The notes under the pieces: model-generated | What the model was told of the DNA's origin: nothing | What the model saw: only the letters and a program-made list of their open reading frames with translations | Database searches by the model: none | Shown here: positions 11,640 through 15,972 of the stretch, one piece after another | Layout of the letters: each line of letters begins with the position of its first letter | Numbering within the stretch: position 1 is the stretch's first letter | Position numbers and translations under genes: made by a program | Assembly (NCBI GenBank): GCA_002338255.1 | Contig: DDHX01000026.1 | Coordinates: 6,837 to 25,221, forward strand | Length of the DNA: 18,385 nt | Direction: 5' to 3' | From: Ruminococcaceae bacterium UBA1865 | GTDB lineage: Bacteria > Bacillota > Clostridia > Oscillospirales > Acutalibacteraceae

Positions 11640-11735
11640 ATTCAACTCTTTGCTGGCTTCTCAGCAAGGATAATCGAATTTTAATCATAATCAAAAAAAG
11701 GGGACACGGCGAAAAATTCGCTGTGTCCCCTTTTT
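11640..11735 (+). ncRNA. Candidate small RNA ending at the manA terminator
   Basis: A transcript from the extended -10 promoter would begin near 11639-11640 and end at the terminator near 11735, about 96 bases. It would contain a six-base-pair hairpin, TTGCTG (11650-11655) with CAGCAA (11662-11667), a single-stranded AT-rich middle, and the long terminator stem. No ATG-initiated frame with a ribosome site is seen in it. This arrangement fits a trans-acting small RNA, or a 3'-UTR-derived RNA of manA. No known family is recognised, and the call is speculative. Confidence 0.3.
11695..11735. terminator. Strong bidirectional terminator between manA and the TrpXYZ-like operon
   Basis: A-tract plus GGGGACAC-G-GCGAA on the left pairs with TTCGC-T-GTGTCCCC plus T-tract on the right around a three-base AAA loop, with a single G-T wobble. 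The flanking A5 and T5 tracts make it work on both strands, for manA (plus) and for the ABC ATPase gene that ends at 11749 (minus). Confidence 0.95.
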
Positions 11736-11748
11736 GAAAAAATGCATC

Positions 11749-12543
11749 TTACGAAAGCAGCATTCTGTCGTTATCCATTGCGTCTCCGCTTGCGGTTTCA
11801 AATTTTTGCAGTAAATCTTTGACCTGTAAATCCTTTTTTTCCTGCCCTTTGATATCCAGAATAATTTTGCCTTCATGCATCATAATCAGGCGATTGCCCA
11901 CCCGAATGGCATCCTTCATATTGTGCGTAACCATCAGCGTAGTCAGACTGTCCCTGCCGACAATTTCGTCGGTCAGTTCCAGCACCTTTCGCGCGGTTTT
12001 GGGGTCAAGCGCGGCTGTGTGTTCATCCAAAAGCAGCAGCTTCGGTTTTTGCAGGGTCGCCATCAGCAGCGTAAGAGCTTGGCGCTGACCGCCGGAAAGC
12101 AAACCGACCTTGCTGGAAAGTCTTGTTTCAAGTCCAAGCTCCAATGTTTGAAGTTTTTCTTTATAGAAAGCGCGTTCCTCGTTCTTAATGCCCCAGCGAA
12201 ACCCGCGCTTTTTCCCTCTGCGGAATGCCATTGCAAGGTTCTCTTCAATACCCATTTCGGATGCGGTACCCATCATCGGGTCTTGAAAAACACGACCCAA
12301 TAATTTTGCGCGTTTGTACTCCGGCTGTCTGGTCAAATCAACGTCGTCCAAAACAATTTGACCGCCGTCACATGGGAAAACACCCGCGATGAGGTTGAGC
12401 AGGGTGGACTTGCCCGCGCCGTTTCCGCCGATTACTGTGATGAAGTCGCCGGTTTCAATTGTTAGGTTCAGATTAGCCAACGCTTTTTTTTCATTGATTG
12501 TATTCGCGTTAAATGTTTTATTCACATTTGTCAGTTGTACCAT
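11749..12543 (-). CDS. ABC transporter ATP-binding protein (TrpZ-like)
   Basis: The ATG at 12543 starts five bases past the permease stop, with AGTGAGGG about nine bases upstream. The 264-residue ATPase has Walker A GGNGAGKST, Q-loop VFQDPMMGT, signature LSGGQRQ, Walker B LLLLDEHTAALDP and the switch histidine in MVTHNMKDA. The DEHTAALDP form, with His after the catalytic Glu where most ABC proteins have Pro, is typical of ATPases paired with ABC_sub_bind-type binding proteins, such as the streptococcal tryptophan system TrpXYZ. It is the last gene of a binding protein, permease, ATPase operon. Aromatic amino acid import is the best guess for the operon, based on family resemblance only. Confidence 0.88.
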   Translation of the reverse strand: MVQLTNVNKTFNANTINEKKALANLNLTIETGDFITVIGGNGAGKSTLLNLIAGVFPCDGGQIVLDDVDLTRQPEYKRAKLLGRVFQDPMMGTASEMGIEENLAMAFRRGKKRGFRWGIKNEERAFYKEKLQTLELGLETRLSSKVGLLSGGQRQALTLLMATLQKPKLLLLDEHTAALDPKTARKVLELTDEIVGRDSLTTLMVTHNMKDAIRVGNRLIMMHEGKIILDIKGQEKKDLQVKDLLQKFETASGDAMDNDRMLLS

Positions 12544-12548
12544 TGTGA

Positions 12549-13610
12549 TTATCCCTCACTTTCGTCGGATTTACGCTTCCTGTGCAACTTTTTGATTAGA
12601 GGCAGGAAAATTCTGCTCAGCATCCGTTTTATTGGCCGCAATATTCTATCTAACATTCTTCTCACTGGCTGAAATATTTTATCCAGTTTTCTTGTTACAG
12701 GAAGCAATATTTTATCCAGCTTTTTCTTCACTGGCTGCAATACTTTATTCAGCACCGGAATTGCCAGTGCAATTGCTACCATGACGGCAGTCAGCAGCTT
12801 TAAGTCGGTGGACTTTAGGCCAAGCCACAGAACCAAAGCGATAATTACACGATAAAGGACGGAACCGACGACTACGGAAATCAGTTTGTAAGCGAACGAG
12901 AATCGTTTCCCCATCAAGACTTCTCCGATGATCACGGACGCAAGTCCAATCATGATGGTACCCGTGCCCATGCCCACATCGGCATAGCCCTGACTTTGCG
13001 CGACCATTGCACCGGAAAGTGCAACCAGACCGTTGCTGAGCACCAAACCTATGATTTTCATTTTGTCGGTGTTCACGCCCAACGCGCGTACCATGTACTC
13101 ATTGTTGCCGGTTGCACGGATGGCGCAGCCGATTTCTGTGCCGAAAATCCAGTACAGCAGAAGAATGACGATTGCTGCGATGATGAGGCCAAGAATCAGG
13201 GATACGATATTTGTGCTGAGTGCTGGAAACAAGACGGAAATTGTTGTGAGAATAGTGGAAACACCAAGAAGCGGAATGTTTGCCTGGCCCATGATTCGTA
13301 TATTGATGGAGTACAAAGCAATCATAGTCAGAATTCCGGCTAAGATACCAGGTATTTCAAGTTTTGTATGTAAGAATCCCGTGATGAACCCGCAAGCCAT
13401 ACCTGCAATCAGTGCGATCAGCAGGGACAAAAAAGGATTCATACCATGTGAAATCAAAACTGCCGAAACTCCGCCGCCGGTCGCAAAGCTTCCGTCAACG
13501 GTCAAATCAGCAAAGTCCAAGACTTTAAATGTGATGTATACGCCGAGCGTCATAATACTCCAGAGCACACCCTGTGCGACCGCGCCCTGCATTGACGAAA
13601 AGATACCCAT
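12549..13610 (-). CDS. ABC transporter permease (TrpY-like) with a five-fold 11-residue repeat tail
   Basis: The ATG at 13610 follows AAGGAG with eight bases of spacing. The protein is 353 residues, longer than the ~290 residues I expect for this BPD_transp_2 permease class. Residues 1-285 are the membrane part, with about eight hydrophobic segments and class motifs such as VLDFADLTVDGSF near the N-terminus, IGCAIRATGNNEYMVRALGVN (the cytoplasmic loop contacting the ATPase) and GFADVG-like AQSQGYADVGMGTG. Residues 287-341 are five tandem 11-residue units of the form L-[DNS]-[KR]-[IV]-[LF]-x-P-[VIL]-x-[KR]-[KM], followed by a 12-residue charged end (342-353). The tail holds about 17 Lys/Arg against three Asp in the repeats. 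Its likely site is the cytoplasmic face. The permease pairs with the lipoprotein and ATPase on either side to import a small solute, possibly tryptophan or a relative. Confidence 0.9.
   Translation of the reverse strand: MGIFSSMQGAVAQGVLWSIMTLGVYITFKVLDFADLTVDGSFATGGGVSAVLISHGMNPFLSLLIALIAGMACGFITGFLHTKLEIPGILAGILTMIALYSINIRIMGQANIPLLGVSTILTTISVLFPALSTNIVSLILGLIIAAIVILLLYWIFGTEIGCAIRATGNNEYMVRALGVNTDKMKIIGLVLSNGLVALSGAMVAQSQGYADVGMGTGTIMIGLASVIIGEVLMGKRFSFAYKLISVVVGSVLYRVIIALVLWLGLKSTDLKLLTAVMVAIALAIPVLNKVLQPVKKKLDKILLPVTRKLDKIFQPVRRMLDRILRPIKRMLSRIFLPLIKKLHRKRKSDESEG
12588..12752 (-). repeat. Five tandem 33-bp units encoding the permease tail
   Basis: Five in-frame 33-bp units cover 165 bp with no spacer. 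Four begin with an L-D/N-K/R codon block, and all carry Pro at unit position 7. DNA identity is clear between units: CTG GAT AAA ATA TT opens two of them, and AATAAAGTATTG, GATAGAATATTG and AGCAGAATTTTC open the others. This points to expansion by repeated duplication within the gene rather than convergence on composition. Confidence 0.9.
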
Positions 13611-13681: not shown

Positions 13682-14710
13682 TTATTTACTGGATGTGCCG
13701 GCTTTATCCAGTAGTTCCTGTGGAATTGTTACATTGATTTTGGTGGCGACCTCTTTATTTAAGGTTAAGTCACAGTTGGTGGAATATTCGATCGGCATAT
13801 CAGCCGGTTTCGCGCCGTCCCTTAAAATCTTGACTGCCTGTTTTGCAGTGAGAAGACCGAGGTTATAATAATTAATGCCGTATGTTGCCAATCCTCCATT
13901 TTTCACCATGCCGGATTCACCGACAATGATCGGAAGCTTTGCCGGCTGCGCTACCATGGAAACTGTTGCCATGCCCGCGGCAATCATGTTATCGGTCGGT
14001 GCGTAAATTGCATCTACTTTGCCGACAAGGGATTGTACGACCTGCTGAATTTCATTGGAATTGGAAACCGTTGCGTCAACTGTTTCAAGCCCAAGAGCCG
14101 CGGCGCTTTTCTTAGCAATTTCAACCTGAAACTTTGAGTTGGTTTCACTGGAACAGTAGAGCATCGCAACCTTTTTAGCGGTCGGAATCAGCTGCTTTAA
14201 CAGTTTCATCTGCTCGTCAACCGGAGTTAAATCGGAAGTGCCGGAAACATTTCCGCCCGGCGCTTTGTTTGAAGCAACCAGTTTAGCGTCTGCTGGGTCG
14301 GTTACTGCCGTGACCAGAACCGGTATATCCTTAGTGGTGTTCGCAACCGCTTGCGCGGCCGGTGTTGCGATTGCGAGAATCAGGTCGGATTTGTCATTAA
14401 CCAACTTGCTCGCAATGGTCTGGCAGTTTGGCTGTTCGCCCTGCGCGTTTTCATAGTCAAGCGTAATGTTCTTGCCGTCCACATAACCTTCTTTTGCTAA
14501 CCCGTCGACAAAACCTTTGTAGGCAGCGTCCAGTGCGGGGTGCTCAACAAGTTGTACAACGCCGATTTTAAATTTCTTTTGATCTGCTGTGGAAGCAGCC
14601 TGCGACGCGGCGCTTGCGTTACTTGATGCAGCAGTGGTGCTCGTTGCGGAACAAGCCGAAGCGGAAAGTGCGATGACGCCTGCTAAAAGAAGCGCAATTG
14701 TTTTTTTCAT
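13682..14710 (-). CDS. ABC transporter substrate-binding lipoprotein (TrpX-like, ABC_sub_bind family)
   Basis: The ATG at 14719 lies directly against its GAGAGG, so the start is taken as the ATG at 14710, nine bases after that site. This gives 342 residues opening MKKTIALLLAGVIALSASAC. C20 is the predicted lipidated cysteine. A Ser/Ala/Thr linker follows to about residue 43. The mature protein is a two-lobed periplasmic-binding fold of the ABC_sub_bind family, with KIGVVQLVEHPALDAAYKGF, DLILAIATPAAQA, DPADAKLVASN and GGNVSGTSD. The VEHPALD and GTSD segments are typical of TrpX-like members. The protein is the first gene of the operon. Known relatives bind tryptophan in streptococci, others bind unknown ligands, so substrate assignment is tentative. 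No T-box leader is present. Confidence 0.9.
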   Translation of the reverse strand: MKKTIALLLAGVIALSASACSATSTTAASSNASAASQAASTADQKKFKIGVVQLVEHPALDAAYKGFVDGLAKEGYVDGKNITLDYENAQGEQPNCQTIASKLVNDKSDLILAIATPAAQAVANTTKDIPVLVTAVTDPADAKLVASNKAPGGNVSGTSDLTPVDEQMKLLKQLIPTAKKVAMLYCSSETNSKFQVEIAKKSAAALGLETVDATVSNSNEIQQVVQSLVGKVDAIYAPTDNMIAAGMATVSMVAQPAKLPIIVGESGMVKNGGLATYGINYYNLGLLTAKQAVKILRDGAKPADMPIEYSTNCDLTLNKEVATKINVTIPQELLDKAGTSSK

Positions 14711-14789
14711 AATACCCATCCTCTCACTATTGCAAACACATTTAATACTTTAAAGTCATAAATGCTTTATCACTTTAAACCGATAAGTA

Positions 14790-14818
14790 ATTTTAACTTA
14801 TTTTAATGCATTCGTCAA
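14790..14818 (-). promoter_or_regulatory. Promoter of the TrpXYZ-like operon
   Basis: On the minus strand a TTGACG -35 (14813-14818) and a TAAAAT -10 (14790-14795), each one base from consensus, are separated by 17 bases. The transcription start would be near 14783. Confidence 0.7.
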
Positions 14819-14824
14819 CCTTTA

Positions 14825-14868
14825 ATTTCACAAAATATTTCGAATTGATTTTAAATATATTGTGAAAT
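14825..14868. repeat. 44-bp inverted repeat between divergent operons
   Basis: ATTTCACAAAATATTT (14825-14840) and AAATATATTGTGAAAT (14853-14868) are inverted copies matching at 15 of 16 positions, with a 12-base spacer. The left arm ends six bases upstream of the minus-strand -35 box. It has low GC content and no T tract, so it is not a typical terminator. It may be a regulator site for one or both divergent operons. Confidence 0.7.
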
Positions 14869-14998
14869 AACACTTCGTTTATAGAGGTTACTGCAAGTCT
14901 GATTTTATATCATCATCAATCCGGCACAGCTTCTCAAAAGTATTGTTTGGCGGAGAACAGCAATATTGGTACATGTGTATATTTTATTTAAATTCAAT

Positions 14999-15037
14999 CT
15001 AAACTAAGCTTAACATGGATTTAACATTGAAGCTTTA
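14999..15037 (+). promoter_or_regulatory. Candidate Pho box upstream of pstS
   Basis: Two perfect TTAACA hexamers (15010-15015 and 15021-15026) are five bases apart, the 11-bp period of Bacillus-type PhoP sites. In the same register CTAAAC (14999-15004) and GCTTTA (15032-15037) are degenerate flanking copies. An A/T-rich -10 candidate, TATAAA, follows at 15041. The position upstream of a phosphate-transport operon supports control by phosphate starvation. Confidence 0.6.
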
Positions 15038-15090
15038 ATATATAAACTGTACTAAAGAACTGAACAAAATTTATAGGGGGATTACCAAGA

Positions 15091-15972
15091 ATGAGAAAGA
15101 TCGTATCTTCTATTTTAACAGCCGCACTCCTGCTTTCTACTGTGGCGTTTGCGGGTTGTAGCTCCGAAATTCAGGGAACCACTTCAACACCTGCTCCGCA
15201 AAGTGCGGCGGCTAATTCCCAAGCTGCTTCGACAGCGGACTTGAGCGGTAAGCTTACATTAAACGGTTCAACTTCCATGGCAAAGGTTTGCCAGGCGCTT
15301 GGCGAAGCCTTTCAGGCAAAGTACCCGGGCGTAACAGTGGAAAAGAGCGGAACAGGCTCCGGCGATGCTTCAAAAGCAGTCAGCGCGGGCACAGCTTTAA
15401 TCGGTGACCTTTCCAGAAACATGAAGGACGAAGAAAAACCCGGCGACTATGAAATTGTACAAATCGCAATCGATGGTATTGCGATTGCAGTTAATAAGGA
15501 TAACAAAGTTTCCGCATTGACCAGCGACCAAATTTCTAAGATATTTACCGGTGAAATCACCAACTGGAAAGCCGTCGGCGGTGCGGACCAAAAAATCACA
15601 GTGCTTGGCCGTGAGGCTGCGAGCGGTACGCGCGATGGTTTTGAGACAATTTTTAAAGTTGCTAAAAAAACCAAGTATGCCGCGGAGCTTTCTTCTACCG
15701 GCGAAGTTGTGACAAAGGTCGGCAGCGATAAAGGTGCCATTGGCTACGTATCGCTTGACTCTGTAAACGATACAATCCAGGCAGTCAGTATCGACGGAGT
15801 AAAGGCCAGTGAAGAAAATATCATTAATAAAACTTACAAGGCACAAAGACCATTCATCGAAATCTACAAAAAAGGTACCGACAGTGATTTGATAAAAGCA
15901 TGGTTCGAATACATCAAATCGGACGAGGGACAGGCAGTTATTAAGAAAACCGGTCTGGTAACTGTAAAATGA
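15091..15972 (+). CDS. pstS: Phosphate ABC transporter substrate-binding lipoprotein
   Basis: The ATG at 15091 follows TAGGGGG with ten bases of spacing. The protein is 293 residues, the usual size for Gram-positive PstS. Residues 1-22 are a lipoprotein signal and C23 in AFAGC is the lipidation site. A Ser/Ala/Thr-rich linker runs to about residue 50. The phosphate-binding loops are visible: LNGSTSM after the linker, EKSGTGSGDASKAV, and GREAASGTRDGFE, the region giving the conserved Arg and Ser contacts. It captures inorganic phosphate outside the membrane and hands it to PstC and PstA. Its stop overlaps the pstC start by four bases (ATGA). It is the first gene of pstSCA(B), with a candidate Pho box upstream. 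Confidence 0.95.
   Translation: MRKIVSSILTAALLLSTVAFAGCSSEIQGTTSTPAPQSAAANSQAASTADLSGKLTLNGSTSMAKVCQALGEAFQAKYPGVTVEKSGTGSGDASKAVSAGTALIGDLSRNMKDEEKPGDYEIVQIAIDGIAIAVNKDNKVSALTSDQISKIFTGEITNWKAVGGADQKITVLGREAASGTRDGFETIFKVAKKTKYAAELSSTGEVVTKVGSDKGAIGYVSLDSVNDTIQAVSIDGVKASEENIINKTYKAQRPFIEIYKKGTDSDLIKAWFEYIKSDEGQAVIKKTGLVTVK

What the first reader, a model, noticed from the sequence alone, without database searches (positions are those of the whole stretch)
12588..12752. A TrpY-like permease ends in five tandem, proline-punctuated, strongly basic 11-residue repeats
Seen directly: residues 287-341 split without gaps into five 11-residue units, L-[DNS]-[KR]-[IV]-[LF]-x-P-[VIL]-x-[KR]-[KM], encoded by five 33-bp units. 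The hydrophobic residues sit at unit positions 1, 4, 5 and 8, and the basic residues at 3, 9, 10 and 11, so each unit is amphipathic with net charge near +3. Known families with 11-residue periods (alpha-synuclein, perilipins, apolipoproteins) bind membrane surfaces through 3-11 helices, and hendecads also form coiled coils. I infer a cytoplasmic tail that lies on the anionic inner membrane face or binds a partner, RNA or the ATPase. I do not know of such a tail in this permease class. Unit-to-unit DNA similarity suggests recent expansion, so copy number may vary between strains.
Basis: partly seen in the sequence, partly recalled or inferred. Interest (0 to 1): 0.72.

Follow-up and report, generated by a model that had tools for sequence, protein, structure and literature searches.

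The report
Exchangeable proline-repeat tail on nutrient importer
A bacterial nutrient-import protein ends in five copies of an 11-residue, positively charged, proline-marked helix unit that probably lies on the inside of the cell membrane, and close relatives carry a different, shorter tail on a nearly identical protein, which makes it a natural test of what such tails do.

Summary
The repeat is real and where stated: five 33-bp units, 12588-12752 (-), residues 287-341 of a BPD_transp_2 permease in an SBP-permease-ATPase operon. It is not chance (0 of 100,000 shuffles) and not recent (units 52-79% alike in DNA).

In 25 units from six repeat-bearing proteins, Pro stands at position 7 in 25 and hydrophobic residues at 1, 4, 5 and 8 in 100 of 100, although the tail changes 3-11 times faster than the core. 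Copy number is 3, 4 or 5. Most other listed homologues have shorter tails without it.

Repeat and non-repeat tails sit on nearly identical cores in three lineages; repeat tails do not form one clade on the core tree. The 3' end of the gene therefore seems to be exchanged.

Best reading (inferred, about 0.5): an enlarged cytoplasmic, cationic amphipathic helix after the last membrane helix, lying on the membrane and tuning the importer. A shorter helix is modelled there in a relative. A look-alike repeat follows an apparent membrane helix in two LRR proteins. No Pfam family matched the tail. A new variant of a known kind.

The parts
12549..13610 (-). ABC importer permease, 353 aa, BPD_transp_2 (PF02653); core = residues 1-286
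   Evidence: ORF; Pfam 98.1 bits, cut-off 26.8; AF2 model matches PsaBC and BtuC-like importer chains by fold, TM-scores 0.44-0.51 by query length
12720..12752 (-). unit 1 LNKVLQPVKKK
12687..12719 (-). unit 2 LDKILLPVTRK
12654..12686 (-). unit 3 LDKIFQPVRRM
12621..12653 (-). unit 4 LDRILRPIKRM
12588..12620 (-). unit 5 LSRIFLPLIKK
12552..12587 (-). end of tail LHRKRKSDESEG; model confidence below 50
12552..12557 (-). GAGGGA, probable ribosome-binding site of the ATPase inside the last codons (Glu-Gly) of the permease; five bases lie between the permease stop and the ATPase ATG
   Evidence: GAGGGG or GGAGGGG lies at the same place in 5 of 8 loci printed (L001, L002, L042, L050, L051), where the genes overlap by ATGA; not in L003, L004, L005
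11749..12543 (-). ABC ATPase, 264 aa, downstream partner
   Evidence: PF00005 96.3 bits
13682..14719 (-). substrate-binding protein, PF04392 ABC_sub_bind, TrpX-like below cut-off

Best explanation
The tail is an enlarged version of a cytoplasmic amphipathic helix that follows the last membrane helix of this importer in the window's nearest (Caproiciproducens-like) relatives. Each 11-residue unit makes three helical turns with one hydrophobic stripe (positions 1, 4, 5, 8) flanked by Lys/Arg, and a proline at position 7 off the stripe, so the helix can bend at regular intervals on one side. I infer that the tail lies as a bent, cationic helix on the anionic inner membrane face next to the ATPases and there anchors or tunes the transporter, as C-terminal domains do in ProP and BetP. 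The array grew by in-frame 33-bp duplication, and the whole 3' end is exchanged between lineages against a shorter tail. Shown: repeat, pattern, copy-number variation, mosaic proteins. Predicted: helix. Inferred: cytoplasmic side, membrane contact, regulatory effect, direction of change.
For: Pattern kept while the tail evolves fast: window-P0001 11/55 against 5/286 in the core, p 1.8e-6; window-P0002 20/55 against 27/286, p 2e-6, and there the changes avoid the 25 hydrophobic/Pro sites (3/25 against 17/30, p 0.0007; all three are hydrophobic to hydrophobic). The third codon position is the least alike between units (0.77, 0.65, 0.55 for positions 1, 2, 3), so selection is on protein rather than RNA. 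AF2: helix 267-346 continuous with TM10, pLDDT blocks 71-75 for residues 281-330; in a non-repeat relative (P0016) the tail is a separate helix 292-311. 26 of 85 distinct homologue tails (those of 18 residues or more, first 27 residues) have a hydrophobic moment with p <= 0.05 against their own shuffles; by my count 19 of the 26 are the window or its nearest relatives. A very similar Pro hendecad (VFTPVGNVLKK...) follows an apparent membrane helix in two BspA-type LRR proteins (L074, L075), which are not ABC transporters; this favours a membrane role over an ATPase-specific one.
Against: No binding or transport data. The 25/25 pattern count is partly circular, because proteins were picked for having the repeat. 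The hydrophobic pattern equals a hendecad coiled-coil core, and the best PDB sequence match is a designed helical bundle (4UOS, E 8.7e-10). The window-P0001 pair alone shows no significant avoidance of hydrophobic/Pro sites (p 0.31). Charge is not kept: whole tails carry +15 in the window but +10 and +9 in P0001 and P0002. 125 of 140 listed homologues have no proline hendecad by the strict rule, so the importer does not need it. Near relatives P0003 and P0012 are not significantly amphipathic (p 0.09, 0.16). Unit 5 is modelled poorly (block 331-340 pLDDT 55), and Pro lowers helix stability.
Confidence: 0.5

Rival explanations
1. Hendecad coiled coil: tails of the two permease copies, or of neighbouring transporters, pair through positions 1-4-5-8 (a-d-e-h) into a straight bundle that clusters or locks transporters.
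For: Exact a-d-e-h spacing (assignment recalled); sequence match to the designed helical bundle 4UOS, which I recall as built on 11-residue repeats; AF2 draws one long helix. ProP is reported to switch its C-terminal domain between membrane and coiled coil (PMC10710835, passages), so both could be true.
Against: Proline in 25 of 25 units; charge +14 on the five units of each window tail would repel; matches to designed helices may reflect composition.
Confidence: 0.17
2. Nearly neutral tail: the permease end tolerates almost any extension, replication slippage made the repeats, and they drift.
For: Tail length varies from 8 to 73 residues in 150 aligned rows; most listed homologues lack the repeat; the tail changes 3-11 times faster than the core.
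Against: Hydrophobic and Pro sites are kept in class through 20 changes between window and P0002, which drift would break; same copy number in window, P0001 and P0002.
Confidence: 0.18
3. Docking tail for the ATPase, another protein or nucleic acid, held by its positive charge.
For: Probably cytoplasmic (inferred from the basic residues after the last membrane helix); the ATPase is the next gene; net charge +14 over the five units.
Against: The ATPase is 88-91% identical in five relatives with a different tail (L001, L002, L042, L050, L051), no more diverged than the permease core (83-90%); look-alike repeats occur in LRR proteins; a hydrophobic stripe is not needed for RNA.
Confidence: 0.1

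Closest known systems
C-terminal regulatory domains of ProP, BetP and OpuA
   Same: Cytoplasmic C-terminal extension of a bacterial transporter; for ProP and BetP switching between membrane and other contacts is reported (PMC10710835, passages)
   Different: No sequence relation tested or known to me; not described there as 11-residue Pro repeats; osmotic regulation is not known here
Apolipoprotein A-I amphipathic repeats (11- and 22-mers)
   Same: Amphipathic helices of 11 and 22 residues interrupted by Pro or Gly (PMC4403311, passages)
   Different: Eukaryotic protein without a membrane-helix anchor (recalled); strong net positive charge here; no homology found
Alpha-synuclein and perilipin 11-residue repeats
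   Same: Eleven-residue period, membrane-surface helices (recalled)
   Different: No Pro in each unit (recalled); neither appeared in the PDB or Pfam scans of the tail
Phage tape-measure-like proteins with 11-residue hydrophobic/Pro spacing (L076, L080)
   Same: hh-x-P-h every 11 residues, runs of 6 and 3; the name tape measure is my reading of the sequence
   Different: Not basic by eye, not after a last membrane helix; E 4e-4 and 0.007 only, not found by profile A6
TrpXYZ importer (Streptococcus suis)
   Same: SBP-permease-ATPase operon (PMC9382623, passages)
   Different: No T-box found in the window; substrate not shown; no tail mentioned in the passages seen

Membership tests
BPD_transp_2 ABC importer permease | PF02653 match above gathering score | tested here: met
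   98.1 bits against 26.8
BPD_transp_2 ABC importer permease | Adjacent ATPase and SBP genes | tested here: met
   PF00005 and PF04392 neighbours
TrpXYZ tryptophan importer | SBP above NCBIfam TrpX cut-off | tested here: not met
   362.5 bits, cut-off 390
TrpXYZ tryptophan importer | tryptophan T-box upstream | tested here: not met
   no Rfam match at gathering in the window; at E <= 1 in 14650-15100 two weak matches to other families only
Hendecad coiled coil | hydrophobic a-d-e-h positions | tested here: met
   100 of 100 in 25 units of repeat-bearing proteins
Hendecad coiled coil | continuous helix without helix breakers | tested here: inconclusive
   Pro in 25 of 25 units, yet AF2 draws a continuous helix at moderate confidence
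Amphipathic membrane-surface helix (apolipoprotein-like) | one hydrophobic face along the whole repeat | tested here: met
   moment 0.71 at 98.2 degrees, 0 of 20,000 shuffles
Amphipathic membrane-surface helix (apolipoprotein-like) | binds lipid surfaces | not testable with these tools
   needs a liposome assay

The most novel reading that the evidence does not exclude
The 3' end of this permease gene is an exchangeable tail cassette: two old tail types (proline-hendecad, 3-5 units, and a shorter Lys/Arg-rich helix) are swapped by recombination between near-identical cores in at least three lineages, flanked by the conserved last membrane helix on one side and the ATPase's ribosome-binding site on the other, so that selection keeps both types and tunes the importer by tail length.
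Probability: 0.35. Interest if true: 0.65.

Novelty: new variant of a known kind. Interest (0 to 1): 0.5.

Why it matters
To my knowledge it is poorly known how lipid-facing tails regulate ABC importers. Here nature supplies matched pairs: cores that differ at 6-8 of 286 residues with entirely different tails, and a series of 3, 4 and 5 units. That makes tail function directly testable by transport assays. The tail is also a minimal natural repeat, defined by five fixed positions of eleven, for studying Pro-bent cationic helices; by sequence its best match in the PDB is a designed helical bundle and not a natural protein.

Tried and rejected
Tail-only protein search: only P0001 and P0040 among 18 candidates, because the method needs shared exact words. 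Tail profiles in wider samples: A3 in 398 family genomes, 7 at E <= 0.01 (about 4 expected by chance by my reckoning), of which only L074 and L075 are strong; A6 in 391 class genomes, 1 at E <= 0.001 (L081, a 22-residue match in an unidentified ORF of 674 aa); A6 in 295 order genomes, 0; A3 in 398 phylum genomes, 0. These empty samples held no known positive. Control: A6 finds G241 and G159 but not G232 and G024; one A6 row comes from each of G241 and G159, so the control holds by construction. DNA origin of the units from the shorter tail: no significant DNA similarity (five tails; shuffles as good in 28-464 of 500). Foreign origin by GC: tail 36% against core 49%, but GC3 0.40 lies inside the core range 0.38-0.71, so not claimed. 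RNA role: third codon positions are the least alike, so not favoured. RNA families: none at gathering, two weak chance-like matches upstream. Solved homologue of the permease by sequence: none but a designed bundle that matches the tail. Literature: (search listings; passages seen of PMC10710835, PMC9382623, PMC4403311); no report of such a permease tail in these listings, which is weak evidence because most subscription papers are missing.

Full report
Observation. The window holds an operon on the minus strand: SBP (13682-14719, PF04392), permease (12549-13610, PF02653) and ATPase (11749-12543, PF00005). The source organism is not known; the nearest named relatives of the permease are Caproiciproducens (Acutalibacteraceae). 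The permease ends in five gapless 11-residue units, residues 287-341, window 12588-12752, as reported. Lag-11 identity is 23 of 44 and was reached by 0 of 100,000 shuffles; lag 22 gives 15. The hydrophobic moment peaks near 98 degrees (0.71; 0 of 20,000 shuffles). TRF finds period 33.

Age. Units are 36-64% identical in protein and 52-79% in DNA; nine of ten pairwise dS values are 0.57 or more or saturated, one (units 1 and 3) is 0.16. P0001 (95% identical overall) and P0002 (86%) also have five units. So the array is not a recent expansion, although a newer exchange between units 1 and 3 is possible.

Pattern. In 25 units from window, P0001, P0002, P0004, P0006 and P0008: Pro at 7 in 25/25; hydrophobic at 1, 4, 5, 8 in 100/100; basic at 3 in 23/25, at 10 in 22/25, at 11 in 15/25, at 9 in 12/25. 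These proteins were picked because they have the repeat, so the count is partly circular. P0005 and P0007, near-copies of P0004 and P0006, were left out; P0007 has Ser at position 5 of unit 4, the one exception seen. P0040, a 247-residue piece with the same tail as P0001, was also left out. The tail evolves faster than the core: window-P0001 11/55 against 5/286, window-P0002 20/55 against 27/286, P0001-P0002 19/55 against 32/286. In window-P0002, changes avoid the hydrophobic and Pro sites (3/25 against 17/30, p 0.0007); in window-P0001 this is not significant (3/25 against 8/30, p 0.31); the third pair (4/25 against 15/30) was not tested. Net charge of the whole tail falls from +15 (window) to +10 and +9 (P0001, P0002).

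Distribution. The two searches with the whole permease listed 140 different proteins (the best 120 of 7,997 and of 3,971, so biased to close relatives). By a strict rule the longest run of Pro hendecads is 5 in 3 (one a fragment), 4 in 1, 3 in 4, 2 in 4, 1 in 3 and none in 125. P0007 counts as 3 by this rule and as 4 if its Ser unit is allowed. Of 73 loci from genome collections, some of them the same gene twice, none carries two or more. Two-unit forms (P0026-P0028, P0035; P0039 with one unit outside the rule) lie elsewhere on the tree. Most other listed homologues have shorter tails that begin K/R-rich after IPV; P0029 has a longer one of another kind.

Tail exchange. A first tree of 57 cores, where only 14 rows bore labels, gave 3 changes for the repeat group with one origin not ruled out. 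On a second tree of 33 cores (31 different; rows chosen by me from 154 collected, 150 after removal of identical ones) with every row labelled, the seven repeat-tail rows need 5 changes, at least 4 forced by well-supported branches, and one clade is rejected (p-AU 1.8e-50; I had seen the first tree). The core columns include the last membrane helix, part of which looks exchanged, so the tree itself is approximate. P0004 and P0013 differ at 1 of residues 1-262 and at 7 of 263-286 (p 9e-8) and then have different tails. P0006 and P0020 differ at 1 of 1-243 and 5 of 244-286 (p 3e-4), then different tails. The window and P0003 differ at 6 of 1-155 and 0 of 156-286 (p 0.03), then different tails, so here no flank came along. 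The repeat tails look homologous to each other (LN[KR][IV][LF]QPV start), and so do the KRKxPA...W tails, so exchange of the 3' end is more likely than repeated independent loss; ancestral polymorphism is not excluded. The breakpoints were chosen by eye, these p-values are descriptive, and I had no DNA of P0004, P0006 or P0003. P0004 is in 2 contigs, P0005 in 1, P0006 in 1, P0007 in 4 (sources may overlap), which speaks against chimeric assembly; P0003 rests on one 1,849-base contig, though P0009, in 2 contigs, has a like tail.

Boundary. The last codons of the permease carry the probable ribosome-binding site of the ATPase (GAGGGA, 12552-12557). In 5 of 8 loci printed (L001, L002, L042, L050, L051) a GAGGGG or GGAGGGG lies at the same place and the genes overlap by ATGA; L003, L004 and L005 differ. 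This can explain the shared SEG/NEG/NGG ending of otherwise different tails and gives conserved sequence on both sides of the exchanged part.

Structure. AF2 from 71 sequences (pLDDT 77.9, pTM 0.72) shows TM10 and tail as one helix 267-346; blocks 281-330 have pLDDT 71-75, block 331-340 has 55, and 338-340 and 342-353 fall below 50. By fold the best PDB matches are PsaBC and BtuC-like chains (E 6e-4 and weaker), whose C-termini I recall as cytoplasmic. P0016, with the shorter tail, gives TM10 267-290, a break, helix 292-311 and disorder. Among 85 distinct tails of 18 residues or more, 26 are amphipathic at p <= 0.05 without correction for many tests; the near relatives P0003 and P0012 are not (0.09, 0.16). 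The tail alone matches in the PDB a designed helical bundle, 4UOS (E 8.7e-10), then 7RDR (1.9e-8), a repeat protein that I recall as designed; no Pfam family matched above cut-off.

Look-alikes. A tail profile found, in 2 of 398 family genomes, ORFs of 2,615 and 3,009 aa (E 6e-10, 3e-9 per genome) with BspA-type LRR domains (PF13306), a hydrophobic stretch that looks like a membrane helix, and in L074 then CRKVFTPVGNV LKKVFSPVGRF LKKIFAPVGRV LMKVLAPIGRF. Register, Pro, hydrophobic sites and Lys fit the permease unit. The two proteins look related to each other, so this is one case; common origin with the permease tail is not shown.

Mechanism. I infer a cytoplasmic, cationic amphipathic helix on the inner membrane face. 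The moment points to 341 degrees and Pro to 229 degrees on the wheel, so regular Pro bends would curve the helix largely within the membrane plane, perhaps round the transporter; this last step is speculation. Reported analogues are the C-terminal domains of ProP and BetP (PMC10710835, passages). A coiled coil fits the hydrophobic spacing but less well the Pro and charge.

Noticed in passing
window 12541-12557: Probable ribosome-binding site of the ATPase lies inside the last permease codons; five of eight relatives printed have a 4-bp ATGA overlap, the window has a TAA and 5 bases instead.
   Followed up: partly
L074 1174-3150 (-); L075 1-3183 (+): BspA-type LRR proteins with runs of four proline hendecads after an apparent membrane helix, very like the permease tail.
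   Followed up: partly
L076, L080: Tape-measure-like proteins (my reading) with hh-x-P-h every 11 residues, runs of 6 and 3.
   Followed up: no
P0029 (protein): A 73-residue permease tail with a longer duplicated stretch (KKLFAPI... about 34 residues apart by my count), another kind of tail expansion.
   Followed up: no
window 11693-11735: Inverted repeat GGGGACACGGCGAAAAATTCGCTGTGTCCCC with A/T runs on both sides just after the ATPase gene, likely a terminator, though the pattern scan listed none.
   Followed up: no
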